Assembly: GCF_900156885.1 (NCBI RefSeq)
Contig: NZ_FTOY01000010.1
Location: 558,001-622,000 of the forward strand
DNA from: Limosilactobacillus caccae
GTDB taxonomy: Bacteria > Bacillota > Bacilli > Lactobacillales > Lactobacillaceae
Length of the DNA: 64,000 bases
Reading direction: 5' to 3'
How positions within the stretch are numbered: position 1 is the first letter of the stretch; the number at the start of each line of letters is the position of its first letter. The notes beneath the pieces were generated by a model that worked only from the letters and a program-made list of their open reading frames with translations, searched no databases and was not told where the DNA came from. Shown here in pieces: positions 1 to 41,932 of this stretch. The translations under genes and the position numbers were made by a program.

Positions 1-3000
1 AACTGCTTCAATGCACCGTGGCGTGATCGTTGATGAAAAGGGTAACTTTGTTGCCTACGGGACGATGAACAATGACGGTACTTACACGGAAAATGATAAC
101 TGGGTAATTGATGGCAACTGGGGTGCAGTTAAATCACCAGACTTGTCAGGTAATGGATACAAGGCACCACGCTTTGACGATCAGAGGCCTGCAGCGGTAG
201 TTGCTGGTCAAGACGTAACTGCTGCCACAAAGGATACGGTGGTTAACGTTTACTACGACCACAACCATATTCCAGTAACGCCAGATAACCCACACGGTGT
301 AAGTCCGGACGAACTTGTAAAGAACGTTAAGGAAACCGTTCATTATGTGGGTGCCGGTGACAAGACCCCTAAGGATAATGTTCAAAATGCTACTTGGACT
401 CGTAACTTAACGAAGGACGCGGTTACTGGTAAACTAGTTCCAAACGGTGAGTATGATACTGATTGGACGCCAAGCAAGACGGACTACGCTGAAGTTAAGT
501 CTCCGGTAGTTGAAGGTTACCACCCAGATCAGGAAACTGTTGGTGCAACTAAGGTTACTCAAGACGATATTAATGTTACTGTCAAGTACTCACCAAATGG
601 TCAAGAAACTAAGGGTGAAAAGGACATTCCTGCAAGTCAAACGACTAAGTTTGTTGACGAAAATGGTAAGGAACTTGCCAAGTCAGTTGTTCAAAACGGC
701 AACTTCCACTACTCAGGTGACACCTATGACAAGGTAACTAATCAGAAGATTAAAGACGGTTCATGGGACAAGGAAAGTATTAATTTTGACCCTGTTACTG
801 CCAAGTTAATTCCTGGTTACGTTGCAATGTCAAAGACTGCTCCTGGTTTAACAGCAACTGTTGATAATCCAGATGTTAATAACGAGATTGTTTACAAGCC
901 AGTTGGTAACATTGTACCGGTTGATGAACAAGGTAACCCAATTCCTGACCCAGCAAATCCTGGTAAGGATGTACCAAACACGCCTTACACCAACGATCAA
1001 ACTGATCCAACCAAGGTAGAACCTAACGAACCAACTCCTAAGATTACAGGTTGGCACTTACAAGATCCTAAGCAAGAGACGATCACGCCAGAGGACCCAA
1101 CCAAGGATACTAAAGTTGTTTACGTTAAGGATGCAATTCCTGCCACTGGTAAGGTTGTTTACATTGACGATACTACTGGTGAGACACTAAAGGCTGACGA
1201 CCTTAAGGGTAACGTTGGCGAGAAGATTGATTACACAACTGCTGACAAGATTGCTGAGTACAAAAACAAAGGCTACAAGCTCGTATCCAACAATTTCGAG
1301 GATGGTAAGGAAACTTACAAGGCAGATGGTAATAACTTTGCCGTTCACTTGGTACACACCGTTGTTCCAGTAACACCAGATACGCCACCAACAGATGTTC
1401 CAGAGACGCCAGATAGTAAGCGGTTAGTTGACCCAGCCAACTTAACTAAGGACGTAACCTTAACGGTAACTTACAAGAATTCAGACGACACTGAATTCAA
1501 GGGCGAAGCTCCAAGCAACGCAACACAAAAGGTAAGATTCACTGGTTCAACCTATGTTGACGCGGTTACTGGTCAATTAGCAAATGCTAAGCAAGACAAG
1601 GATGGCGCCTGGGTTGTTGATAAGAGCAATACCGCTACACCATCAATTAAGTGGACTCCAGAAAGTGGTTCGTTTGATAAGGTTATTTCACCAGCTGAAA
1701 CTGGTTACCACGTAACTAATGTTTCAAGTCACGCCGATGGTAATGATGTTGCAGCTATCAATGGGATTACGCAGAATAGTCAAAACATTGACGTTACTGT
1801 AACTTACGAATCAAATGGTCAAGAAGTTAAGAATGCTCGGGACCTTCCTGCAAGTCAAACGACTACGTTTGAGGATGAACAGGGTAATGAACTTGCTAAG
1901 CCAGTTGTCCAACACAGTAGCTTCCATTACAGTGGTGACACTTACGACAAGTTTACTGGTCAGAAGATTAAAGATGGTTCATGGGATGAAGAAAGCCACA
2001 AGTTTAACGCCGTTGACGCTCCAGTAATTAAGGGTTACGTTGCTGAAGTTAAGACTGCGGATGGCTTGACTGCAACGATCAAGGATCCAAATGTTAAAAA
2101 CAAGGTTGTTTACCACAAGATTGGTAAGATCATCCCGGTTGACAACATCACCAAGAAGCCAATTCCTGGTGCAAAGCAACCACAATACCAAAATGATCAA
2201 ACTGACCCAACCAAGGTTGTTCCAAACGAACCAATTCCAGACGTTAATGATTACTTCCCAGTTAACCCTGGTCAACAGGTAACGCCAGCAGACCCAACCG
2301 TGGATACGCCAGTTCCTTACAAGCAAGTTATCCACGGTACAATCAAGTACATTGATGACACGACTGGCGGGACATTAAAGACTGATAAGTTCCAAGGCTT
2401 TATCGGTGACAAGATTAACTACACGACTGCTGAGATAATCAAGGGTTACGAAGACAGTGGTTACAAGTTAGTATCTAACGACTTTAGCGATGGCAAGGAA
2501 GTCTACAAGCAAGATGGTAACGACTTTGTAGTTCACCTTGTACACACTTACACTCCAGTAACTCCTAATGACCCACACGGCATGGATCCACGGAATCTTA
2601 TTAAGGATGTTAAGGAAACAGTTCACTACACGGGAGCCGGTGACCAGACTCCTAAGGATGTTGTTCAAACTTCCCAATGGACTCTTCAGTTGACTTACGA
2701 TAATGTTGACAAGAAGATTGTTCCAGGTGGCAAGCTTGATAAGCCATGGGCAATTGCACCAGGTCAAAAGACAAGCTACGACGAAGTGAAGACTCCTGAA
2801 CTTGAAGGCTACCACGCTGATAAGGAAACTGTTCCAACAACTAAGGTTACTCAAGATGACATTTATGTTACTGTAACTTACGCACCAAACGGTCAAGAAG
2901 TTAAGGATCAAAAGGACGTTCCAGCAACACAAACAACTAAGTTCGTTGACGAAAACGGTAAGGAACTCGCTACTAGCGTTGTTCAAAACAGCAACTTCCA

Positions 3001-6000
3001 CTTCTCTGGTAACACCTACGACAAGTTTACTGGTAAGCAGATCAAGGCTGGTTCATGGAATGAAGAAAGCCACCAGTTTAACGCCGTTGATGCGCCAGTA
3101 ATTAATGGTTATGTAGCAGAAACTAAGACTGCGGATGGCTTGACTGCAACGATTGATAATCCAAACGTTACAAACGAGGTTGTTTACCACAAGGTTGGTA
3201 AGATTGTTCCAGTTGACCCAGAAGGAAACCCAATTCCAGACGCACCAACACCGGTATACCAAAACGATCCAAAGGACCCAACCAAGGTAACACCAAACGA
3301 ACCAACGCCTAATGTGCCAGGTTGGACGACTGATACGCCAACGGTAACGCCAACTAAGCCGACAGAGGATACCCCAGTTGTCTACAAGCAGGCTGTTCAA
3401 GGGACTGTTAAGTACATCGATGACACTACCAAGACAACCTTAGACACGGTTGCCTTACCAGGTGGTTACGTCGGCGACAAGATTAACTACTCAACAGCAG
3501 ATCGGATTGCGGAATACGAAAAGCAGGGTTACAAGTTAGTTTCAAACGGCTTTAAAGACGGTAATGAAACTTACGCTAAGACTGGTAACGACTTTGAAGT
3601 TCACTTTGTCCACAACCTTATTCCAGTAACACCTAATAATCCTCATGGTGTCGATCCATCATTAGTTCAAAAGGATGTTAAGGAAACTGTTAAGTACGTT
3701 GGTGCCGGTGACAAGACTCCAAAGGACAATGTTCAAACTTCCCAATGGACTCGTACCTTAACAATGGATCAAGTTACTGGTCAAATTATTCCAAACGGTA
3801 AGTTAGACACTGATTGGGCAATTGCACCAGGTCAAAAGACGAGCTACGACGAAGTTAAGACGCCAGTTGTTGAAGGCTACCACGCTGATAAGGAAACAAT
3901 TCCAGCAACGAAGGTAACCCAACAAGATATCACGGAAATCGTAACTTACGCACCAAATGGTCAGGAAGTTCGTGATGTCAAGGATGTTCCAGCAAGTCAA
4001 ACGACTAAGTTTGTTGATGATGATGGTGTTGAAATTGCGGATGCAGTTGTTCAAAACAGCAACTTCCACTTCTCTGGTAACACCTACGACAAGGTAACTG
4101 GTGATAAGATTGCTGATGGTTCATGGGATGCGCAAAGCCATGAGTTTAACTCAGTTAACGCGCCGGTAATTATTGGTTACGTTGCTGAAAAGAAGACGGC
4201 TCCTGGTTTAACTGCAACGATCGACAATCCAAACGTGGAAAACCAGATCGTTTACCACAAGATTGGTAAGATTATCCCAGTTGATCCAGATCACAACCCA
4301 ATTCCAGACGCCCCAACACCTGACTACCAAAACGATCCAAAGGACCCAACGAAGGTAACACCAAATGAACCAGTTCCAGAAGTTCCTGGCTACGAGCCAA
4401 CTGTTCCAACGGTAACGCCAGAGGATCCAACCCAGAACAAGCAAGTTGTTTACAACCAAGTGGTTGATGGGACGGTTACCTACTACGATGACACTACTCA
4501 TCAAATCTTAGGCGCTGTTGACTCAATTAAGGGTTACGTTGGCGAAAAGATCAACTACTCCACCCAGGGACGGATCGACAATTACCTTTCAAAGGGCTAC
4601 AAGCTAGTATCTGATGGTTTCACTACTAGTGACCAAGTCTTCAAGAAGGCTCACAACATCTTTGAAGTTCACTTTGTTCACAGCTACTCACCTGTTAACC
4701 CACAGAATCCAAATCCAAAGGTTAATAAGGATGAATACAGCAGGGACTACACTTCAACTGTTCACTACGAAGGTGCCGGCAGTCAAACACCAAAGGACAA
4801 TGTCCAAACTTCAACTTGGACAAGAACCCTTACGATTGACAACGTAACTGGTGCGATTATTCCAGGCGGTCAATACGACACTGATTGGGCTCCAGACAAG
4901 GATAGTTACGATGCTGTGCCAACGCCTGAAATTCCGGACTTTGCTCCTAACAAGACGGAAGTTCCAGCTAAGCCAACTGAGCAAAAGGACCTTAATGAGA
5001 CCGTTGTCTACTCCCCAGTAGCCAAGGATCAACACGCGAAGGTTCAATACATTGACTTAGATGAAAACAATAAGGTGATTGAAGAATCACCACAATTGAC
5101 TGGTAAGGCCGGTGACAAGATCAACTACAGTACTGCTGACGTAATTAAGCAGCTTACTGACAAGGGTTATGTTCTTGTTAACAACGGCTTCCCAGAAGGG
5201 GCTGCCTTCGATAACGTTGAAGGTAACGAACAAGTCTTCACTGTTACATTCAATCACGGTCATCAACCGGTCAACCCACAAACCCCAGGTAAGCCGGGCG
5301 AACCAATCAACCCTAACGATCCAGAAGGGCCAAAGTACCCAGCTGAATCTGATGAGGTAACTAAGGATGTTACCCGGACAATCCAATACCTTGATGCAAG
5401 TGGTAACAAGGTAAGCAGTGATGTTGAACAACCAACTCACTTTACTGCCGAAGGTGTTCTTGACAAGGTAACTGGTAAGTGGATTACGCCATTGACTTGG
5501 AGCGGTGCCCAAACTGTTCCAGCCGTTAAGAGTCCATTTGTTGAAGGTTCACACATTACTGGTGTAAGTGGCGATAGCAAGGACAAGGTTAATGTTGATG
5601 CGGCAACGCTTGATCACACGAAGGATAACTACACTGTTACTGTAAATTACGCACCAAACGGTAAGATTATCCCAGTTGATCCATCTGGTAACCCAATTCC
5701 AGACGCACCAACACCACAATACCCAACTGATCCAAGCGATCCAACGAATGTAACACCAAACGAACCGGTACCATCAATCCCTGGTTACACGCCTGACGAA
5801 CCAACGGTAACGCCAGAAAACCCAGGTACGGACACCACTGTTGTCTACCGGGCAACGATTGATGCAACGGTAACTTACATCGATGACACTACTAAGGAAA
5901 CATTGAAGACTGATTCATTCAGTGGTGCCGAAGGTAAGAAGAGTGATTACTCAACGAAGACATCCATCGATGACTACCTTGCTAAGGGTTACGAATTAGT

Positions 6001-9000
6001 AAGCGATGACTTCCCAGCAGCTGGTTACACATTTGCTAAGGATGGTTCACACAGCTTTACTGTTCACTTGAAGCACGGTACGCAACCGGTTAACCCTAAC
6101 AACCCAGGCGGTGGTTACACCCCAACTGACTTGCAAAAGGATGTTACCCGGACGATCAACTACATCAACGCTGAAAATGGTGCTCAAGTAGCTGCACCAG
6201 TTAGCCAAGAAGTTCACTTTGAAGCTAACGGAACCCTTGATAAGGTTACTAACCAACTTGTTTCCGTTGATAAGAACGGTAACATCACTGGTGCTGGTGA
6301 ATTATCATGGACGCCAGCCCAAAGTGTTGATGGTGTTAAGTCACCAGTTGTTGATGGGATGCACGTAACGACGGTTAGTCGTGATGCTGACGGAATCAAC
6401 GTTGCTGGCGTAACGCTTAACCACGATAGCAACAGTTACGATGTTACTGTTACTTACTTGAAGAACGGTACCAAGGATGAGAACGGTGAAAACATTCCAG
6501 CTAGTCAAACAATCAAGTTTGTTGACGAAAATGGTAACCCATTGCGTGACAACAATGTTCAAACTAGCGAATTTACCCGGACACCAGATGTAATTGATGC
6601 CGAAACTGGTAAGACCCTTACTGAAGGTTCATGGAACGAAACTAGCCACAAGTTTGGCGAAATCAACGTCCCAGTAATTCCTGGTTACGTTGCGGAAGTC
6701 AAGACTGCTGGTGGATTAACGGCAACGACTGACAAGCCAAATGTTGAAACAACGGTTGTTTACCACAAGGTTGGTAACATTATCCCAGTTGATCCATCTG
6801 GCAAGCCAATTCCAGGTGCCCCAACGCCTGCTTACCCTAACGATCCAACTGATCCAACAACGGTAACGCCAGACGAACCAACACCTTCAATTCCTGGTTA
6901 CACGCCAGATGAACCAACGGTAACACCACAAGATCCAACTAAGGACACGAATGTTGTTTACCGTCAGGATGTTCAAGTAACTGTCACATACGTTGACGAT
7001 GTTACTGGTGGAACCTTGAAGGTTGACCGCTTGAACGGTCTTGAAGGCAAGGCAAGTGACTACTCAACGAAGAGTTCCATTGATGGTTACGTTGCGAAGG
7101 GCTACAAGTTAGTAAGCGATGACTTCCCAGCAGCTGGTTACACATTTGCTGTTGACGGTCAACACGCATTTACTGTTCACTTGACGCACACCACGAGTCC
7201 GGTAAACCCTAACAACCCAGGTGGTGGCTACACCCCAACTGACTTGCAAAAGGATGTAACGCGGACAATCAACTTTGTTAACAGTCAAGACGGTAAGCCA
7301 GTGGCTGCACCAGTTGAACAAACTGTTCACTTTGAAGCTAACGGAACGGTTGATAACGTTACTGGTAAGTTAGTAACGGTTGATGGCGACAAGATTATCC
7401 CAGATGGTCAACTTAGCTGGACACCAGCCCAAAGCGTTGACGGGGTAACTTCACCGACAGTTGATAGCATGCACGTAACTTACGTCAGCCAAGATGCTGA
7501 TGGGACAAACGTTGCTGGCGTAACCCTTAACCACGACAGCAATAGCTACACTGTTACTGTTAACTACGCACCAAACGGCCAAGTTAACAAGAACGGCGAA
7601 AACATCCCAGCTAGTCAAACAATCAAGTTTGTCGACGAAAATGGTAACCCATTGCGTGACAACAATGTTCAAACTAGTGAATTTACGCGGACACCAGACG
7701 TTGTCGATGAAGTAACTGGCAAGATCATCACTGAAGGTTCATGGAATGAAACTAGCCACAAGTTTGGCGAAGTTAACGTCCCAGTAATTCCTGGTTACGT
7801 TGCCGAAGTGAAGACTGCCGGTGGCTTGACCGCAACGACTGACAAGCCAAACGTTGAAACGACGGTTGTTTACCACAAGGTTGGTAAGATTATTCCAGTT
7901 GACCCATCTGGTAACCCAATTCCAGGTGCGCCAACACCGGCTTACCCTAATGATCCAGCTGATCCAACTGGGGTAACACCAAATGAACCAGTACCAACTA
8001 TTCCTGGTTACACACCTTCCGTACCAACCGTAACGCCAGAAAACCCAACTAAGGATACGACGGTTGTCTACAACCCAATCGTAAACGATCAAAATGCGGT
8101 TGTTGTATATGTTGACCAAGATAACAACAACGCTCAAATCGCAACTTCTGGTAACTTAACTGGTAAGCCAGGGGACAAGATCAACTACAGCACTGCTGAT
8201 GAGATCAAGGCTCTTGAAAACCAAGGTTACGAATTGGTAAGCGATGGCTTCACTGCCGGGGCAACATTTGATGACGACGACAACACTACCCAAACATTTA
8301 CGGTAGTATTGAAGCACGGTCACCAACCAGTTAACCCACAAAACCCAGGTAAGCCAGGCGAACCAATCAACCCGAACGACCCAGAAGGTCCGAAGTACCC
8401 AGCTGATTCTGATCAGGTTTCAACTGATGTAACCCGGACGATCGAATACGTTGACGAAAATGGCAACAAGTTATCAAACCCAATTGATCAAACTGCCCAC
8501 TTCGAAGGTAACGGGGTACTTGATAAGGTAACTGGTGAATGGATTACGCCAATTACTTGGACTGGTGATGGTAACTTAGCTGGTGCTAAGACGCCAGTAG
8601 TTGACGGCTACCACGTAACGCGGGTAAGTCGTGACAGCAGTGATAACGTAAACGTTGATGCCACAACTGTTAACCACAAGACTGATAGCTACACCGTTAC
8701 GGTAAGTTACGCTCACAACGGTAAGATCATTCCAGTTGACCCATCTGGTAACCCAATTCCAGGTGCACCAACACCAACTTACCCAACTGATCCAAGTGAT
8801 CCTGCAAAGGTAACGCCAAACGAACCAGTACCATCAGTTCCTGGCTTTACCCCATCAACGCCAACTGTAACGCCACAAAACCCTGGCGTTGATACTCCGG
8901 TTATCTACAACCCAATTATCAACGACCAGCACGCAACGGTAACTTACATTGACGATGATACTAACAAGACCCTTGATATCGCTAAGTTGACTGGTAAGCC

Positions 9001-10786
9001 TGGTTCAACCAGTGACTACCGGACAGCTGACACGATCAAGAACTTTATCAACCAAGGTTACAAGTTAGTAAGCAATGATTACCCAGCAAACGGGGTTGTC
9101 TTCGATGATGATGACAGTGTTGACCAAAACTTCACGGTCCACTTCACACACACGACAACGGACTTCAATCCGAACAACCCAGGTAAGCCGGGCGAACCAT
9201 TGAACCCTAACTACCCAGAAGGTCCAAAGGTAACCAATGATGACGTTGATTACCAACGGGATGTAACGGCAACGGTTCACTACGTTGGTGCCGGCAACAA
9301 CAACCCAGCTGACAACGTCCAAAATGCTCAATGGACGCGGACAATCACCGTTGATAACGTAACTGGTGAGATCGTTAAGAGCACGGAATGGCTCAGCAAC
9401 AAGGACAGCTATGATGCCGTTAAGACCCCAGTTGTCGACGGCTACTACGCTGACCGGGCACAAGTGGACGGCCACAAGGTAACAATGGATAACCTCGAAT
9501 CAACTGTAACGTACGCACCAAACGGTAAGATCGTGCCAGTTGACCCACAAGGTAACCCAATTCCGAATGCGCCAACACCACAGTACCCAACTGATCCAAG
9601 TGACCCAACAAACGTAACACCAAACGAACCGGTACCATCAATTCCTGGTTACACTCCTTCCGTACCAACGGTAACACCACAAAACCCTGGTGTTGACACT
9701 CCGGTTGTTTACACGAAGGACACGGTTGTACCAAAGCCAGCAAACGATCAAACAGCTGTTGTTAACTACATCGACCAAGATAATAACAACGCTCAGATCG
9801 CAACTTCTGGTAACTTAGTTGGTAAGCCAGGGGAGAAGATCAACTACAGCACCGATGATGAGATCAAGGCCCTTGAAAACCAAGGTTACGAATTAGTAAC
9901 GGATGGCTTCCCAGCAGACGCAACTTATGACCACGATGATGATGTAAACCAAGTCTTCACCGTTGTCTTGAAGCACGGTCACGCTCCAGTTGGCCCTAAC
10001 AATCCACACACTCCAGGTACGCCAATCAACCCTGGCGAACCGAACGGACCAAAGTGGCCATCAGAGGACAACTACCAGAAGGAATACACTTCAACAGTTC
10101 ACTTCGTTGACAACAACGGTAACAAGTTGAGCAAGGATGATGTTCAAACTTCAACTTGGGGCCGGACATTGATCATCGACAAGGTTACTGGTGAAATCAC
10201 TAACCCAGATGAAAACTGGACTTCTGACATTACTGATTATGACGCTGTTAAGGTACCAGTAGTTGATGGCTACGTAGCCGACAAGGCGGTAGTTCCAGCC
10301 AAGAAGGCGGTTCAAGAAAACCTTGAAGAAACGGTTACCTACAGCAAGATTGGTAACATCGTCCCAGTTGACCCTAGTGGCAACCGGATCCCTGGTGTTC
10401 CAGTTAAGCCATACGTAAATGATCCAGAAGACCCAACGAAGGTTGTACCAAACGAAAGTGTTCCAGAAATCCCTGGCATGACACCAAGTGTAACGACGGT
10501 AACGCCAGTTAACCCAACTGAAGATACGCCAGTTGTTTACACGATGCCAACGCCAGTAACGCCACAGACGCCAAGCAAGCCAGCTGAACCGGCTAAGCCT
10601 GCACCAAAGGCACCGGTAACGCCACACGCAGATGCTCCGGCTCCTGCACCGGCTGCTCAACCAGCTGCCAAGACATTGCCACAAACTGGTAATGAAACTG
10701 GCGACTCTGCTGCCGCCTTAGGTCTCGCAGCCCTTGGATTATCTGGCATGTTAGTTGCTGGTAAGAAGCGCCGCAAGGAAGACTAA
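1..10786 (+). CDS. Giant Mub-type mucus-binding LPXTG surface protein (5' end outside window)
   Basis: The frame is open to the left edge, so the signal peptide and true start lie upstream; about 3,594 residues are visible. The protein is built from some ten composite repeats of roughly 0.8-1.4 kb. Each combines a Mub_B2/MucBP-like segment (core YIDDTT, later KGYxLVS), a long mucin-binding-type module (core VQTSxWTR or ASQTTKFVDE) and a Pro/Asp-rich segment starting G[KN]I[IV]PVD. PVD segments start near nt 905, 2123, 3197, 4265, 5660, 6775, 7887, 8719, 9525 and 10352. The C-terminus has a Pro/Ala/Lys wall spacer, LPQTG (nt 10676-10690), a hydrophobic stretch and KKRRKED, a complete sortase A signal. 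It should be covalently wall-linked and bind host mucus glycans. The repeat architecture is seen; the binding role is known for Mub-family proteins and inferred here. Confidence 0.93.
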   Translation, partial: TASMHRGVIVDEKGNFVAYGTMNNDGTYTENDNWVIDGNWGAVKSPDLSGNGYKAPRFDDQRPAAVVAGQDVTAATKDTVVNVYYDHNHIPVTPDNPHGVSPDELVKNVKETVHYVGAGDKTPKDNVQNATWTRNLTKDAVTGKLVPNGEYDTDWTPSKTDYAEVKSPVVEGYHPDQETVGATKVTQDDINVTVKYSPNGQETKGEKDIPASQTTKFVDENGKELAKSVVQNGNFHYSGDTYDKVTNQKIKDGSWDKESINFDPVTAKLIPGYVAMSKTAPGLTATVDNPDVNNEIVYKPVGNIVPVDEQGNPIPDPANPGKDVPNTPYTNDQTDPTKVEPNEPTPKITGWHLQDPKQETITPEDPTKDTKVVYVKDAIPATGKVVYIDDTTGETLKADDLKGNVGEKIDYTTADKIAEYKNKGYKLVSNNFEDGKETYKADGNNFAVHLVHTVVPVTPDTPPTDVPETPDSKRLVDPANLTKDVTLTVTYKNSDDTEFKGEAPSNATQKVRFTGSTYVDAVTGQLANAKQDKDGAWVVDKSNTATPSIKWTPESGSFDKVISPAETGYHVTNVSSHADGNDVAAINGITQNSQNIDVTVTYESNGQEVKNARDLPASQTTTFEDEQGNELAKPVVQHSSFHYSGDTYDKFTGQKIKDGSWDEESHKFNAVDAPVIKGYVAEVKTADGLTATIKDPNVKNKVVYHKIGKIIPVDNITKKPIPGAKQPQYQNDQTDPTKVVPNEPIPDVNDYFPVNPGQQVTPADPTVDTPVPYKQVIHGTIKYIDDTTGGTLKTDKFQGFIGDKINYTTAEIIKGYEDSGYKLVSNDFSDGKEVYKQDGNDFVVHLVHTYTPVTPNDPHGMDPRNLIKDVKETVHYTGAGDQTPKDVVQTSQWTLQLTYDNVDKKIVPGGKLDKPWAIAPGQKTSYDEVKTPELEGYHADKETVPTTKVTQDDIYVTVTYAPNGQEVKDQKDVPATQTTKFVDENGKELATSVVQNSNFHFSGNTYDKFTGKQIKAGSWNEESHQFNAVDAPVINGYVAETKTADGLTATIDNPNVTNEVVYHKVGKIVPVDPEGNPIPDAPTPVYQNDPKDPTKVTPNEPTPNVPGWTTDTPTVTPTKPTEDTPVVYKQAVQGTVKYIDDTTKTTLDTVALPGGYVGDKINYSTADRIAEYEKQGYKLVSNGFKDGNETYAKTGNDFEVHFVHNLIPVTPNNPHGVDPSLVQKDVKETVKYVGAGDKTPKDNVQTSQWTRTLTMDQVTGQIIPNGKLDTDWAIAPGQKTSYDEVKTPVVEGYHADKETIPATKVTQQDITEIVTYAPNGQEVRDVKDVPASQTTKFVDDDGVEIADAVVQNSNFHFSGNTYDKVTGDKIADGSWDAQSHEFNSVNAPVIIGYVAEKKTAPGLTATIDNPNVENQIVYHKIGKIIPVDPDHNPIPDAPTPDYQNDPKDPTKVTPNEPVPEVPGYEPTVPTVTPEDPTQNKQVVYNQVVDGTVTYYDDTTHQILGAVDSIKGYVGEKINYSTQGRIDNYLSKGYKLVSDGFTTSDQVFKKAHNIFEVHFVHSYSPVNPQNPNPKVNKDEYSRDYTSTVHYEGAGSQTPKDNVQTSTWTRTLTIDNVTGAIIPGGQYDTDWAPDKDSYDAVPTPEIPDFAPNKTEVPAKPTEQKDLNETVVYSPVAKDQHAKVQYIDLDENNKVIEESPQLTGKAGDKINYSTADVIKQLTDKGYVLVNNGFPEGAAFDNVEGNEQVFTVTFNHGHQPVNPQTPGKPGEPINPNDPEGPKYPAESDEVTKDVTRTIQYLDASGNKVSSDVEQPTHFTAEGVLDKVTGKWITPLTWSGAQTVPAVKSPFVEGSHITGVSGDSKDKVNVDAATLDHTKDNYTVTVNYAPNGKIIPVDPSGNPIPDAPTPQYPTDPSDPTNVTPNEPVPSIPGYTPDEPTVTPENPGTDTTVVYRATIDATVTYIDDTTKETLKTDSFSGAEGKKSDYSTKTSIDDYLAKGYELVSDDFPAAGYTFAKDGSHSFTVHLKHGTQPVNPNNPGGGYTPTDLQKDVTRTINYINAENGAQVAAPVSQEVHFEANGTLDKVTNQLVSVDKNGNITGAGELSWTPAQSVDGVKSPVVDGMHVTTVSRDADGINVAGVTLNHDSNSYDVTVTYLKNGTKDENGENIPASQTIKFVDENGNPLRDNNVQTSEFTRTPDVIDAETGKTLTEGSWNETSHKFGEINVPVIPGYVAEVKTAGGLTATTDKPNVETTVVYHKVGNIIPVDPSGKPIPGAPTPAYPNDPTDPTTVTPDEPTPSIPGYTPDEPTVTPQDPTKDTNVVYRQDVQVTVTYVDDVTGGTLKVDRLNGLEGKASDYSTKSSIDGYVAKGYKLVSDDFPAAGYTFAVDGQHAFTVHLTHTTSPVNPNNPGGGYTPTDLQKDVTRTINFVNSQDGKPVAAPVEQTVHFEANGTVDNVTGKLVTVDGDKIIPDGQLSWTPAQSVDGVTSPTVDSMHVTYVSQDADGTNVAGVTLNHDSNSYTVTVNYAPNGQVNKNGENIPASQTIKFVDENGNPLRDNNVQTSEFTRTPDVVDEVTGKIITEGSWNETSHKFGEVNVPVIPGYVAEVKTAGGLTATTDKPNVETTVVYHKVGKIIPVDPSGNPIPGAPTPAYPNDPADPTGVTPNEPVPTIPGYTPSVPTVTPENPTKDTTVVYNPIVNDQNAVVVYVDQDNNNAQIATSGNLTGKPGDKINYSTADEIKALENQGYELVSDGFTAGATFDDDDNTTQTFTVVLKHGHQPVNPQNPGKPGEPINPNDPEGPKYPADSDQVSTDVTRTIEYVDENGNKLSNPIDQTAHFEGNGVLDKVTGEWITPITWTGDGNLAGAKTPVVDGYHVTRVSRDSSDNVNVDATTVNHKTDSYTVTVSYAHNGKIIPVDPSGNPIPGAPTPTYPTDPSDPAKVTPNEPVPSVPGFTPSTPTVTPQNPGVDTPVIYNPIINDQHATVTYIDDDTNKTLDIAKLTGKPGSTSDYRTADTIKNFINQGYKLVSNDYPANGVVFDDDDSVDQNFTVHFTHTTTDFNPNNPGKPGEPLNPNYPEGPKVTNDDVDYQRDVTATVHYVGAGNNNPADNVQNAQWTRTITVDNVTGEIVKSTEWLSNKDSYDAVKTPVVDGYYADRAQVDGHKVTMDNLESTVTYAPNGKIVPVDPQGNPIPNAPTPQYPTDPSDPTNVTPNEPVPSIPGYTPSVPTVTPQNPGVDTPVVYTKDTVVPKPANDQTAVVNYIDQDNNNAQIATSGNLVGKPGEKINYSTDDEIKALENQGYELVTDGFPADATYDHDDDVNQVFTVVLKHGHAPVGPNNPHTPGTPINPGEPNGPKWPSEDNYQKEYTSTVHFVDNNGNKLSKDDVQTSTWGRTLIIDKVTGEITNPDENWTSDITDYDAVKVPVVDGYVADKAVVPAKKAVQENLEETVTYSKIGNIVPVDPSGNRIPGVPVKPYVNDPEDPTKVVPNESVPEIPGMTPSVTTVTPVNPTEDTPVVYTMPTPVTPQTPSKPAEPAKPAPKAPVTPHADAPAPAPAAQPAAKTLPQTGNETGDSAAALGLAALGLSGMLVAGKKRRKED

Positions 10787-10917: not shown

Positions 10918-10954
10918 GAGACCCACGGCTCAGATTGAGCTGTGGGTCTTTTTG
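10918..10954 (+). terminator. Intrinsic terminator of the mucus-binding protein gene
   Basis: A 14-bp stem (agacccacggctca pairing with tgagctgtgggtct) with a 3-nt loop is followed by a T run. It lies about 130 bp after the stop codon. Between stop and hairpin nothing else is seen. Confidence 0.9.
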
Positions 10955-11162
10955 CGTGAACGGAAAAGTTTGTGCGCTTTTGTGAGAAGCTAATCAAACG
11001 ATAAAGAGTTTTGAGAACAACGATAATCATATGAAAAAAGCTTCATTTATATAAAATGAATTTCACAATTAATAAATTTATATTCACCTGTTAAAACGTT
11101 GATATAAAAGCAAAGAGAAAATTAATAACTAGTTAAATATTGATTTTCTAGCGATAAACCAG
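10955..11162. other. AT-rich spacer, no gene seen
   Basis: This A/T-rich stretch between the surface-protein terminator and the promoter of the candidate large RNA has no reading frame with a ribosome site. An alternative -35-like ttgata lies at 11099-11104, but no convincing -10 is found at the right distance. Confidence 0.5.
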
Positions 11163-11190
11163 TTGCAAATATTAATAACACGGGTAAAAT
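11163..11190 (+). promoter_or_regulatory. Putative promoter of the large structured RNA
   Basis: TTGCAA at 11163-11168 and TAAAAT at 11185-11190 are separated by 16 bp. Transcription would begin near 11197, just before the first strong hairpin (11209-11244). It is inferred from consensus match only. Confidence 0.5.
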
Positions 11191-11196
11191 AATAGG

Positions 11197-12137
11197 TGAA
11201 AGTTGAGATAGGTAAATACCAGCTTGATTGTGAGTATTTACCTACCGAATAGCCAGTTTTGCCACCTGCTCGTTGCAGGTTACGGTGAGGCTTGCCAACA
11301 GGCAACGACACCCATTCAACTGACAACCTTGAATGAGGCGCAACCTGGTAGTGATCATGTGCAGTTCACTACTTATCTTGAAGAACTTTTTACCTTTTAT
11401 TTATGATACAAGTGATTATTGCATGACTTAATAGGTTCTGATAGATAGTGACAAGTATGCGCCGGTTGGCTTGGGACTAGTTCCCTTATAACTGGCGGAT
11501 AGGTTATTGTGGTCCTTGCTACTTTAGGCGACCCCCGATGCCTATTGAGGATGGGGTACAATAGCGGTTGTCGCTTAACTCAATGGTGGTAACAGTTAAG
11601 TAGTTAAATAGAAAGTAACAGTTTTTTGTGCATTGCCTGTTACTTACCACCGCTCCCTAACAGTGTGTAAGGTACTTAACCTTACAACCAGGGTATCATT
11701 TATATAGCGAACGCTACGGCGATGGGATGTCAGACGGTTAATAATGCTTATAAGAAACCCCCGAATACTTAACTTTAAGCAACTAAACAGTAGCTTTACC
11801 TCCCCCAGATAGTTAGGAATGTAAGCTTACTGTCTTCGCCAACAGCGGTAAGCAGTTGTTATGTTTCTCCAAGCTTATCAAGTAAGTGTAAATGACTACT
11901 GTAATACTGTTAATGACAACTATTAAAGAAGCGGTCCGACGGTACACATACATGTTTAAATACAAAATGATACCCGCAAAAGTCGGCACAGAAATGCAGT
12001 GATTGAGCTAATGTGCTAAGCCTAATCACATGCGGCCGCTTGGTAGTAAGTTTAATGTTGAATGGTGCTTACTATCAAAGTTAGTTGTGCGTAAACTAAC
12101 CAAAAAAGAGACTGATATTAACGCAGTCTCTTTTTTG
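11197..12137 (+). ncRNA. Candidate large, highly structured noncoding RNA (~940 nt)
   Basis: No credible coding frame occurs in this interval, but it is packed with local and nested helices. Perfect examples are 11209-11219/11234-11244 (11 bp), 11264-11269/11275-11280, 11292-11296/11301-11305, 11313-11319/11329-11335, 11574-11580/11594-11600, 11585-11592/11644-11651 enclosing 11613-11621/11637-11645, 11666-11672/11680-11686, 11825-11830/11848-11853, 11936-11940/11982-11986, 11999-12004/12024-12029, 12042-12050/12068-12076 (one G-U) and 12080-12086/12094-12100. It ends in a strong intrinsic terminator. Size, complexity and host group recall the large ornate RNAs GOLLD and ROOL, which occur in Lactobacillales and their phages, but no diagnostic motif could be matched. 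It may be one of these, another class, or new. Presence of structure is seen; transcription and class are inferred. Confidence 0.65.
12102..12137 (+). terminator. Intrinsic terminator ending the structured-RNA region
   Basis: The stem aaaaaagagactg / cagtctctttttt around a 9-nt loop is followed by more T residues. The symmetrical A and T runs make it potentially bidirectional. It separates the RNA from the serS promoter. Confidence 0.88.
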
Positions 12138-12156
12138 TTTTTAAATTAAAATTCGA

Positions 12157-12185
12157 TTGATAAATTAACCGAAGTGTAATAAGAT
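12157..12185 (+). promoter_or_regulatory. Putative serS promoter
   Basis: TTGATA (12157-12162) and TAAGAT (12180-12185) are separated by 17 bp, directly upstream of the T-box leader. Confidence 0.6.
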
Positions 12186-12189
12186 AGGT

Positions 12190-12413
12190 GCAGATAAAAA
12201 ACACGGTTGCATTTCAAGTAGGTCATCTAGAGAAGCAGCGGGTGGTGGAAGCTGCTGACCGAAACTCCGGTGCAAGAGTATGTGGGCGGGTAATGCCGCA
12301 CGGTTAGTAGCCGTTATCTACTACGAGGGTGACATTTGTCAAACTTGGGTGGTACCGCGGAACCAGAGCCATTTCGTCCCAAAATATTGAGGATGAAGTG
12401 GCTCTTTTTATAT
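12190..12413 (+). promoter_or_regulatory. T-box riboswitch controlling serS
   Basis: Hallmarks of a T-box leader are visible: AGTA in the specifier region (12218-12221), an AG-rich bulge followed by GGTGGTGGAA in distal stem I, and the T-box core GGGTGGTACCGCGG near 12347-12360. The terminator helix agagccatttc / gaagtggctct with a T run ends near 12412. On the 3' side of the specifier loop the sequence gaaactccg contains TCC, a serine codon, which fits sensing of uncharged tRNA-Ser. The specifier is inferred from position relative to the stem. Confidence 0.9.
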
Positions 12414-12426
12414 AGGAGGAAATACG

Positions 12427-13734
12427 ATGTTAGATATTAAAAAGATCCGGCAAGAACCAGACTTCTTTAAGGAAAAGTTAGCGACGCGTGGTGTTAAGGC
12501 CGAAGAGATTGATGAAGTGCTTGCCCTTGATAAGAAGCGGCGGGACTTGCTTCAACAAACTGAAACAATGAAGGCCCAGCGAAACGAAGCGTCAAAGAAG
12601 ATTGGGGAAGCTAAGCGTAACGGTGAAGCTGCTGACGATGCGATTAAGGAGACCCGTGAACTTGGCGATAAGATTAAGGAATTAGATGAACAAGTCGAGG
12701 CCAATGACAAGGAATTGCATGATAAGATGGCCCACTTGCCAAACATTCCCCATGATGGTGTGCCAGTTAGCCTGACTGAAGATGGCGCCGTTGAACTGCG
12801 GAAGGTGGGAAAGGTTCGTGACTTCAACTTTGAACCTAAGCACCACTGGGACGTTGGTGAAAACCTGGGGATCCTTGACTTTGACCGGGCCGGCAAGGTT
12901 TCTGGTGCCCGTTTTGTCTACTACCTTGGCCTTGGTGCGCAATTAGAGCGGGCCGTTTACAACTTCATGCTTGATGAACACATGAAGGATGGCTACACCG
13001 AAGTATTACCACCATACATTGTTAATGCTGCTTCAATGTACGGTACGGGGCAATTCCCGAAGTTTAAGGAAGGGGTTTACCAAGTTAATGGTGAAGATAT
13101 GACCCTGATCCCAACGGCGGAAGTACCGTTGACCAACTACTACCGGGGTGAAGTGATTCCTAGTGAAGAATTGCCAGTATACGTTACTGCATTAACGCCG
13201 TGCTTCCGTTCTGAAGCCGGGGCTGCTGGTCGTGATACCCGGGGATTGATCCGGATGCACCAGTTCAATAAGGTAGAAATGGTTAAGTATACGAAGCCAG
13301 AAAACTCATGGGATGAACTCGAAAAGATGACTGCCAACGCAGAAAACATCTTGAAGAAGCTCGACATTCCATACCACGTGATCACTTTGACCACTGGTGA
13401 TATGAGTTTCACTGCTTCTGAGACCCACGATATCGAATTGTGGATGCCAGCCCAAAACAAGTACCGTGAAGTATCATCATGCTCAAACTGCCTGGACTTC
13501 CAGGCCCGGCGGATGCACACCCAGTACCGGGATGAAGATGGCAAGCTCCAGTACGTTCACACCTTGAATGGTTCGGGCCTTGCTGTTGGTCGGACGGTTG
13601 CCGCAATTCTTGAAAACTACCAAAACGAAGATGGCTCTGTAACAATCCCAGAAGTCTTAGTGCCATACATGCATGGGGTAACTAAGATTACGAAGGAAAA
13701 TGCCGTGCCATTCCGTAACAAGCTTAATAAGTAG
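12427..13734 (+). CDS. serS: Seryl-tRNA synthetase
   Basis: The 435-aa length is normal for SerRS. The enzyme charges tRNA-Ser (and tRNA-Sec where present) with serine in the cytosol. The N-terminal ~110 residues are charged and form the long tRNA-binding coiled coil. The class II core follows: [10 protein letters not shown] near residue 229, motif 2 [15 protein letters not shown] near 259 and motif 3 [15 protein letters not shown] near 382. A good ribosome site (aggagg) precedes the ATG. Upstream T-box control by serine starvation agrees with the product. It is monocistronic, closed by a terminator. Confidence 0.98.
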
Positions 13735-41825: not shown

Positions 41826-41840
41826 CTTAAATAACAAAAA

Positions 41841-41932
41841 TACCTTTAAGTTAGTCCCGTGAGGCTAAGAAGGATTTAATTGCGCGTTTTTAAGTCGACC
41901 TTCTTAGCCACCGCTAAGGAGGTTTTTCTTTT
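41841..41932 (+). promoter_or_regulatory. PyrR-dependent attenuator of the pyr operon
   Basis: AGTCCCGTGAGGCT (41853-41866) matches the PyrR binding-loop consensus ARUCCNGNGAGGYU exactly. Its flank ggctaagaagg can pair with ccttcttagcc as an antiterminator. The competing terminator is ccttcttagc-cacc-gctaaggagg (41899-41922), a 10-bp stem with one G-U, followed by tttttctttt. UMP-bound PyrR should favour termination. pyrR itself is not in this window. Confidence 0.9.

What the first reader, a model, noticed from the sequence alone, without database searches (positions are those of the whole stretch)
11163..12137. A ~940-nt hairpin-dense noncoding locus: candidate large ornate RNA
Between the giant adhesin and serS there is about 1 kb without a plausible gene, yet with a promoter-like start, at least a dozen perfect helices of 5-11 bp including nested ones (8 bp at 11585-11592/11644-11651 enclosing 9 bp at 11613-11621/11637-11645), and a strong terminator. 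Size and complexity resemble GOLLD and ROOL, large RNAs known from Lactobacillales and phages. Those often lie in prophages or near tRNAs; here no phage gene or tRNA is seen, so a chromosomal or different class is possible.
Basis: partly seen in the sequence, partly recalled or inferred. Interest (0 to 1): 0.88.

Follow-up and report, generated by a model that had tools for sequence, protein, structure and literature searches.

The report
New large structured bacterial RNA gene
Next to a sticky surface-protein gene, bacteria related to the probiotic Limosilactobacillus reuteri carry a roughly 940-letter RNA gene that seems to make no protein but has kept an elaborate folded shape, and it matches no RNA family in the library searched.

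Summary
Window 11197-12139 (+) reads as a self-contained gene for a large structured noncoding RNA between an LPXTG adhesin and the serS T-box. Homologues occur in 10 of 50 Limosilactobacillus genomes, the window's own included (one lacks the 5' half), at 68-77% identity in the four relatives, with serS downstream in 10 of 10. Named carriers include L. reuteri and L. caviae. The promoter is kept in 9 of 9 full copies; no frame is shared by more than 5 of 9.

A 215-pair structure with two pseudoknots is 95.7% paired over 9 species. Fifty pairs carry compensatory changes, against 19 in shuffles and 10-14 in slid controls. A null that keeps relatedness gives 10, against 47 observed.

It is not a recognisable ROOL or GOLLD: no Rfam match up to E 10, while the same library finds L. 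salivarius ROOL at 130 bits. No phage or plasmid match; no credible match outside the genus in samples of 396 family genomes. It looks dispensable.

Verdict: a new class of large ornate-type RNA. Expression and function are untested.

The parts
11144..11165 (+). Conserved box just upstream of and overlapping the -35 element (TTTTCT-NNN-GATAAA-N-CAGTTG)
   Evidence: Present in 8 of 9 full homologues by strict pattern, the ninth (L158) being a close variant; one site in the whole own genome with up to 2 mismatches.
11163..11190 (+). Promoter -35/-10: TTGCAA-16-TAAAAT
   Evidence: kept as TTG(A/C)AA-16/17-TA(A/G)A(A/C)T in 9 of 9 full homologues.
11197..12139 (+). Inferred transcript, about 943 nt (start inferred from the -10 element, end from the terminator)
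   Evidence: Inference; no RNA data.
11209..11244 (+). 5' hairpin of the window copy; this leader differs in length and sequence between species
   Evidence: fold; alignments.
11250..12101 (+). Conserved core of the RNA (A5 columns 1-910)
   Evidence: 9 species, mean column identity 80%.
11252..11496 (+). Domain I, closed by 11252-11260/11488-11496; contains helices 11311-11318/11330-11337, 11348-11356/11364-11372 and 11373-11386/11435-11448
   Evidence: helices 1-6 and 8-10, 93.8-100% of cells paired, double changes in helices 1, 2, 3, 6, 8, 9, none in 4, 5, 10.
11322..11328 (+). Pseudoknot 1, first strand (GACAACC in an apical loop of domain I); pairs with 11566-11572
   Evidence: Found by covariation scan; 7 pairs, 100% of cells paired, 3 pairs with double changes (helix 7).
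11566..11572 (+). Pseudoknot 1, second strand (GGTTGTC)
11503..11565 (+). Domain II arm 11503-11513/11555-11565 with hairpin 11526-11529/11540-11543 presenting C-rich loop 1 (CCCCC at 11532-11536)
   Evidence: helices 11, 12; loop conservation (CCTCC in L157, six C in L152).
11574..11600 (+). Hairpin 11574-11580/11594-11600 whose loop strand 11585-11590 forms pseudoknot 2 with 11646-11651
   Evidence: Helix 13 98.4% paired, 2 double-change pairs; pseudoknot 2 (helix 14, picked by eye, not by the scan) 100% paired, with one double-change pair (A-U in 6, G-C in 3 sequences).
11615..11643 (+). Hairpin 11615-11621/11637-11643
   Evidence: Helix 15: 5 of 7 pairs with double changes.
11646..11657 (+). 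Pseudoknot 2 second strand (11646-11651) and CTCCC (11653-11657), unpaired in the final structure; CTCCT in L158
11666..11686 (+). Hairpin 11666-11673/11679-11686
   Evidence: Helix 16, 100% paired, 2 double-change pairs.
11691..11975 (+). Domain III, closed by long-range helix 11691-11698/11968-11975; inner stem 11724-11739/11905-11921; C-rich loop 2 (11758-11762, apical) and C-rich stretch 3 (11802-11806, unpaired in the final structure; a small hairpin around it pairs poorly in some species)
   Evidence: Helices 17-25, 83-100% paired, double changes in seven of nine.
11980..12041 (+). Domain IV, 3' two-helix arm
   Evidence: Helices 26-27, 100% and 85.5% paired; part of model R1.
12042..12076 (+). 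Hairpin with conserved apical AATGTTGAATGGTG (one difference in L158)
   Evidence: Helix 28, 99.1% paired, 3 double-change pairs.
12080..12100 (+). Invariant hairpin GTTAGTT-GTGCGTA-AACTAAC
   Evidence: Identical in all 10 copies; the letters never vary, so this helix has no covariation test (helix 30).
12102..12139 (+). Intrinsic terminator
   Evidence: Fold; a stem plus T-run in the same place in 9 of 10 loci (L157 has an insertion). Not listed by the pattern scan.
11..10786 (+). Upstream gene: giant LPXTG adhesin (its frame is open at the window's 5' edge); a terminator-like hairpin follows at about 10920-10953 (my reading of the letters; the scan does not list it)
   Evidence: 19 Muc_B2, 10 MucBP_2, Gram_pos_anchor.
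12195..12384 (+). Downstream neighbour: serS T-box leader with its own promoter-like site 12157-12185; not part of the RNA
   Evidence: 71 bits, E 5.9e-15, below the 93-bit gathering score.
12427..13734 (+). serS, seryl-tRNA synthetase; downstream neighbour in all 10 loci

Best explanation
This is a free-standing chromosomal gene for a roughly 943-nt structured RNA of a class not in Rfam. It has its own promoter and terminator and lies between the adhesin gene and the serS T-box, so it is made as its own transcript (inferred). Shown by comparison: the RNA folds into several helical domains, locked by two pseudoknots (a loop of domain I pairs with a strand of domain II; a hairpin loop in domain II pairs with a strand about 55 nt further on). 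Inferred: like GOLLD, ROOL and OLE it works in trans as a stable folded particle or scaffold, using highly conserved unpaired elements (three CCCCC stretches, CTCCC, GUGCGUA, AAUGUUGAAUGGUG) to hold partners (further copies of itself, other RNAs or protein), and it gives a non-essential benefit. I hold it about 95% likely to be a real structured RNA, and about 55-60% likely that it acts in trans as a scaffold or particle rather than as one of the rivals below.
For: Homologues in 10 of 50 genus genomes; the same 10 with a covariance model of the 3' part (the model was built from nine of the ten copies, so this is not independent). Promoter 9 of 9, terminator 9 of 10. 215 pairs, 95.7% of cells paired, 50 double-change pairs against 19.1 in letter shuffles and 10-14 in slid controls. 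47 double-change pairs against a mean of 10.2 (maximum 15 of 30) in re-folded column shuffles that keep relatedness, consensus energy -298 against -179. The + strand beats the - strand. Pseudoknot 1 came out of a scan. No shared frame. The serS side has its own T-box and promoter-like site.
Against: No RNA-seq or Northern result was available, so transcription is inferred. Only 9 full sequences, one genus. One covariation measure, further pair types, is not above shuffles (146 of 500), and helices 19 and 27 pair in only 83% and 86% of cells. No partner, oligomer or phenotype is known. The RNA looks dispensable: G063 lacks the 5' half and G018, inside the reuteri clade of a serS tree, has no copy. 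I made no systematic search for self-complementary loops, so nothing here speaks for or against oligomers. A trans role is an inference from anatomy alone.
Confidence: 0.6

Rival explanations
1. A very large trans-acting riboregulator: the C-rich elements bind G-rich Shine-Dalgarno regions of mRNAs, as in C-rich-loop sRNAs of Firmicutes (RsaE/RoxS, LhrC, FsrA; recalled, no call).
For: Three highly conserved CCCCC stretches, two of them in apical loops, and one unpaired CTCCC. In 319 called gene starts, stretch 3 gives strong duplexes (-12 kcal/mol or better) in 51, against 20 in inner coding windows and 11.6 with shuffled letters; CTCCC in 23, 4 and 13.2; GGGGG stands in 16 start regions against 3 inner windows.
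Against: Loop 1 shows nothing (38, 54, 36.6) and loop 2 little (14, 12, 5.2). The starts were chosen partly by Shine-Dalgarno strength, which favours any C-rich query; the plain 16S anti-Shine-Dalgarno control scores 63, 2, 33.6. Such sRNAs are, as recalled, far smaller and do not need 215 pairs.
Confidence: 0.2
2. A cis-acting element of the adhesin-serS intergenic region: it insulates or tunes serS or adhesin expression rather than acting in trans.
For: All 10 copies lie directly upstream of the serS T-box.
Against: It has its own promoter and terminator, and serS has its own T-box and promoter-like site downstream. In 20 of the 21 RNA-less loci examined serS keeps the T-box motif and does without the RNA. 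An element of 0.9 kb with long-range pseudoknots is not needed for insulation.
Confidence: 0.12
3. A divergent GOLLD or ROOL that Rfam's models no longer recognise.
For: Similar size and pseudoknotted build; Lactobacillales host. Rfam models lose sensitivity with divergence, and no GOLLD positive control was run.
Against: No match to either up to E 10 in the window or at E up to 1 in six homologous loci, while ROOL of L. salivarius scores 130 bits with the same library and aligns with this RNA only at chance level. Not in phages or plasmids, no tRNA in the window.
Confidence: 0.05
4. A decayed protein gene or mobile element, with no RNA function.
For: One weak nucleotide match (16.8 bits, E 9.8e-5) links core profile positions 42-108 to a repeat of another giant adhesin in the same genome; reversed and unrelated sequences gave no hit up to E 10.
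Against: Of 8 protein-to-core matches at E 0.01 or better, 5 are the fused G063 frame itself and 3 are at the level seen in shuffled cores. Of the ten non-RNA rows I inspected four, none of them in an adhesin repeat like that one (one, L250, lies in a surface-type repeat protein by my reading); six were not inspected. Strong compensatory change is not expected of decay. Even if the 5' domain began as coding DNA, it is now under RNA-structure constraint.
Confidence: 0.03

Closest known systems
GOLLD RNA (Rfam RF01998; accession recalled)
   Same: Large (many members exceed 800 nt), encoded by bacteria of Lactobacillales among others, function unknown (PMC12286853, passages read).
   Different: No Rfam match. 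[quoted passage not shown] this RNA is chromosomal between an adhesin and serS, with no tRNA in the window and no phage match.
ROOL RNA (Rfam RF03087), including the L. salivarius megaplasmid lncRNA (PMC5643018, abstract and passages read)
   Same: Long, noncoding, predicted to have multiple pseudoknots (PMC12286853, passages), Lactobacillaceae host, non-essential.
   Different: ROOL's model matches L. salivarius pMP118 at 130.4 bits but not this locus; alignment only at chance level; ROOL there lies on a megaplasmid and is 520 nt (model 574); this one is chromosomal and about 943 nt.
OLE RNA
   Same: Large ornate RNA of Gram-positive bacteria; ribonucleoprotein complex (PMC10898510, PMC9723947: abstracts in the listing).
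   Different: No Rfam match; about 600 nt; no partner gene is recognised here.
serS T-box leader (RF00230)
   Same: Immediate downstream neighbour.
   Different: A separate regulatory RNA at 12195-12384, beyond the terminator of the new RNA.

Membership tests
Structured noncoding RNA gene (general) | Conserved in relatives | tested here: met
   10 of 50 genus genomes, own included, one of them without the 5' half
Structured noncoding RNA gene (general) | Compensatory base changes beyond a null that keeps relatedness | tested here: met
   47 against 10.2 mean, 15 maximum of 30; 50 against 10-14 slid
Structured noncoding RNA gene (general) | No conserved protein frame | tested here: met
   No shared stop column in more than 5 of 9
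Structured noncoding RNA gene (general) | Discrete transcript | not testable with these tools
   Promoter and terminator conserved, no RNA data
ROOL | Match to the Rfam covariance model | tested here: not met
   No match up to E 10; positive control L. salivarius 130.4 bits
ROOL | Phage, prophage or plasmid location, often near tRNAs | tested here: not met
   No phage or plasmid match, three viral-contig patterns 0, no tRNA in the window, serS neighbour in 10 of 10; the window's other genes were not screened for phage families
ROOL | Homo-oligomeric nanocage | not testable with these tools
   Needs cryo-EM or sizing
GOLLD | Match to the Rfam covariance model | tested here: not met
   No match up to E 10 nor at E up to 1 in six homologous loci; no GOLLD positive control was run
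GOLLD | Prophage or tRNA-island location | tested here: not met
GOLLD | Homo-oligomeric (14-mer) cage | not testable with these tools
   Needs cryo-EM
OLE | Match to the Rfam covariance model | tested here: not met
   no OLE positive control was run
C-rich-loop sRNAs | C-rich elements complementary to Shine-Dalgarno regions beyond controls | tested here: inconclusive
   Stretch 3 and CTCCC above controls, loop 1 not, loop 2 weakly; biased start selection

The most novel reading that the evidence does not exclude
A new class of ornate RNA that assembles into an RNA-only homo-oligomer (cage or ring) like GOLLD and ROOL, but evolved independently and settled in the chromosome of host-associated lactobacilli beside an adhesin instead of in phages, so that it can be studied in a tractable probiotic species.
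Probability: 0.25. Interest if true: 0.9.

Novelty: new variant of a known kind. Interest (0 to 1): 0.72.

Why it matters
Bacterial noncoding RNAs of this length with covariation-supported architecture are few (recalled: GOLLD, ROOL, OLE and a handful more), and most are unexplained. This one is about 943 nt, has two pseudoknots, matches none of 4227 Rfam families and sits at a fixed chromosomal place in L. reuteri and its relatives, where genetic tools exist (recalled). It makes the question of what ornate RNAs are for testable outside phages, with natural null strains already at hand (G018, G063).

Tried and rejected
First alignment mixed strands and was discarded; redone. The one family-wide hit outside the genus (L177) rests on one generic hairpin beside a transcription-regulator-like frame: taken as chance. 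Blastn rows below the four strong relatives are mostly matches to the terminator or short chance stretches. The 150-base 5' piece in 50 genomes: 9 of 19 rows are the RNA itself; of the ten others I inspected four (L244, L245, L247, L250), all in coding frames. Adhesin origin of the 5' domain: one suggestive nucleotide match, not supported by protein comparison; left open. Pfam on the 60-aa frame 11224-11403: nothing. RNAalifold's pairing of columns 327-333 with the 3' domain was replaced by pseudoknot 1, which covaries better. The scan gave 16 helices, 11 outside the nested fold; pseudoknot 1 is the best of these, one became helix 13, and the other nine (among them columns 324-328 with 416-420, which competes with accepted helices) were not adopted. 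Pseudoknot 2 is not in that list; I picked it by eye and tested it. Anti-Shine-Dalgarno test: mixed. Literature: searches showed me no report of this RNA; most subscription journals are not held.

Full report
What is there. The interval lies between a giant LPXTG adhesin (11-10786, frame open at the window edge; 19 Muc_B2 and 10 MucBP_2 stretches plus a Gram-positive anchor) and serS (12427-13734). After the adhesin the letters at about 10920-10953 form a terminator-like hairpin with T-run (the scan does not list it). serS has a T-box at 12195-12384 (71 bits, E 5.9e-15, under the gathering score of 93) with a promoter-like site before it at 12157-12185. Between them stand a promoter-like site at 11163-11190 and a long terminator hairpin at about 12102-12137. 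No frame of more than 65 aa lies in the interval.

Conservation. Blastn of 11150-12140 against 56 genomes gave four strong matches besides the window itself (identity 68-77%, E 1.3e-42 or better); the other rows were weak and short. With a relative's copy as query, 10 of 50 Limosilactobacillus genomes match, the window's own included. A covariance model of the 3' 129 positions, built from nine of these copies, finds the same 10 of 50. A DNA pattern in GTDB species genomes gives 6 stretches, named L. balticus, L. rudii, L. agrestis, L. reuteri WF-AA1-C, L. caviae and Lactobacillus sp. 0.1XD8-4. The two other models also match in these: the 5' model in five of six, the middle model in six of six, the last cut off by the end of the held stretch. 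In 396 family genomes (a sample that includes part of the genus, with stricter filters), the 3' model matched 6, of which 5 are Limosilactobacillus and one I take as a chance hairpin. The 5' model matched 4 of 396, all Limosilactobacillus. There was no match in 50,697 phage or 72,556 plasmid records, nor with three specific patterns in viral contigs.

Synteny. In all 10 loci the T-box motif and serS follow the RNA. An LPXTG anchor with LPQTG motif is found upstream in 8 of the 9 full loci (in L153 none in the stretch held). The promoter is kept in 9 of 9 full copies and a terminator stands in 9 of 10. Of 30 serS loci inspected (the best 30; 45 of 47 genomes had serS), 21 lack the RNA. In 19 of those 21 a forward open frame of 70 aa or more ends within 400 nt of serS (443 and 490 nt in the other two), against 1 of the 9 loci with the RNA; 20 of 21 keep the T-box motif (frames are stop to stop, some may be spurious). 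A serS tree holds 9 of the 10 carriers: 8 form one clade together with G018, which lacks the RNA, and the window's genome lies apart. The G018 region upstream of serS holds insertion-sequence-like DNA (my reading). The split distribution means either loss in many lineages or transfer; the single-gene tree cannot decide.

Structure. Nine full copies were aligned (A5, 910 columns). RNAalifold gave 205 pairs, 44 with compensatory change. With ribosum scoring the figures are 243 pairs, 47 compensatory, energy -298. Thirty re-folded alignments with columns shuffled inside conservation classes, which keeps the relatedness of the sequences, gave 10.2 +/- 2.8 (maximum 15) and -179 +/- 6.6. The reverse complement gave 34 and -261, with more broken cells (206 against 139). 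A scan for covarying helices found columns 74-80 with 327-333: 7 pairs, none broken, 3 with double changes, the best of 11 helices outside the nested fold. Pseudoknot 2 was picked by eye. My final structure (30 helices, 215 pairs, two pseudoknots) pairs 95.7% of 1923 cells. It has 50 pairs with double changes against 19.1 +/- 3.2 in shuffles (0 of 500 reach it) and 10-14 when slid by 1-3 columns. One measure, further pair types, is not above shuffles (146 of 500). Helices 19 and 27 are the weakest (83% and 86% paired), and helices 4 and 30 never vary. The structure was partly derived from these sequences, so the slid control leans in its favour; the re-folded null does not share that bias.

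Noncoding. No stop column is shared by frames of 25 aa or more in more than 5 of 9 copies, on either strand, and gap lengths ignore the codon period.

Not a known family. Rfam at gathering level reports only a PyrR site in the whole window. In the interval at E up to 10 the T-box is the only match near significance; 14 other rows, with E from 0.1 up, I take as chance, several of them on the terminator. Six homologous loci give only T-boxes at E up to 1. As a positive control the same library finds ROOL in L. salivarius pMP118 at 130.4 bits, and that ROOL aligns with this RNA only at chance level (best blastn piece 22 nt, E 0.065; no nhmmer hit). No GOLLD or OLE positive control was run.

Mechanism. 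Shown: conserved gene signals, conserved fold, pseudoknots, lack of a shared frame. Inferred: an independent transcript, a trans-acting folded particle. Highly conserved unpaired elements are candidate contact points: three CCCCC stretches (two in apical loops), CTCCC, GTGCGTA, AATGTTGAATGGTG. A test of the C-rich elements against 319 gene starts was mixed and biased by start selection, so the riboregulator rival stays open. Dispensability is suggested by G063, whose one-contig genome keeps only the 3' part, with an adhesin frame running into it, and by G018.

Possible origin. A profile of the core matches one repeat of a second giant adhesin of the same genome (core 42-108; 16.8 bits, E 9.8e-5). 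Reversed and unrelated sequences gave no hit, but protein comparison did not support it, and the four other-genome hits that I inspected are not such repeats. I leave this as a lead: domain I might be reused adhesin coding sequence.

Literature. Seen: abstract, section list and passages of PMC5643018, passages of PMC12286853, PMC2864571 and PMC11109978, and a term search of PMC6429828 with no occurrence of its four terms. Others were seen only in search listings. Nothing that I saw mentions this RNA.

Noticed in passing
L159 (G063:C1, around 120,900-121,420): The 5' part of the RNA gene is missing and an adhesin-like reading frame runs straight into the remaining part, ending on codons made of RNA-gene sequence: a natural deletion and fusion in a one-contig genome.
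   Followed up: partly
L188 (G018:C1, upstream of serS): A member of the reuteri clade without the RNA and without the serS T-box motif; repeated insertion-sequence-like DNA and what looks to me like the end of a group II intron lie in their place.
   Followed up: partly
L157 (G066:C1), just after the invariant 3' hairpin: The usual terminator is interrupted by about 150 nt of other sequence, with a different terminator-like hairpin further on.
   Followed up: no
L222:11377-11442 (-) against core profile positions 42-108: A repeat-coding stretch of a second giant adhesin (3735 aa) resembles the RNA's 5' domain at 16.8 bits, hinting that the RNA may have reused adhesin sequence.
   Followed up: partly
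window 11144-11165: A conserved 22-base box upstream of and overlapping the -35 element, found once in the genome; may be a regulator site specific to this RNA.
   Followed up: partly
window 11294-11301 and 11838-11845: The octamer GCCAACAG occurs twice in the conserved core; perhaps a shared tertiary or protein-binding motif.
   Followed up: no
G011, G021, G032, G061, G072: These Limosilactobacillus genomes each have two full-length serS matches, the second at about 84-87% identity to the window's SerS (in G032 and G061 both lie in that range).
   Followed up: no
window 41839-41930: PyrR binding site (RF00515, 56 bits), an ordinary pyrimidine attenuator.
   Followed up: no
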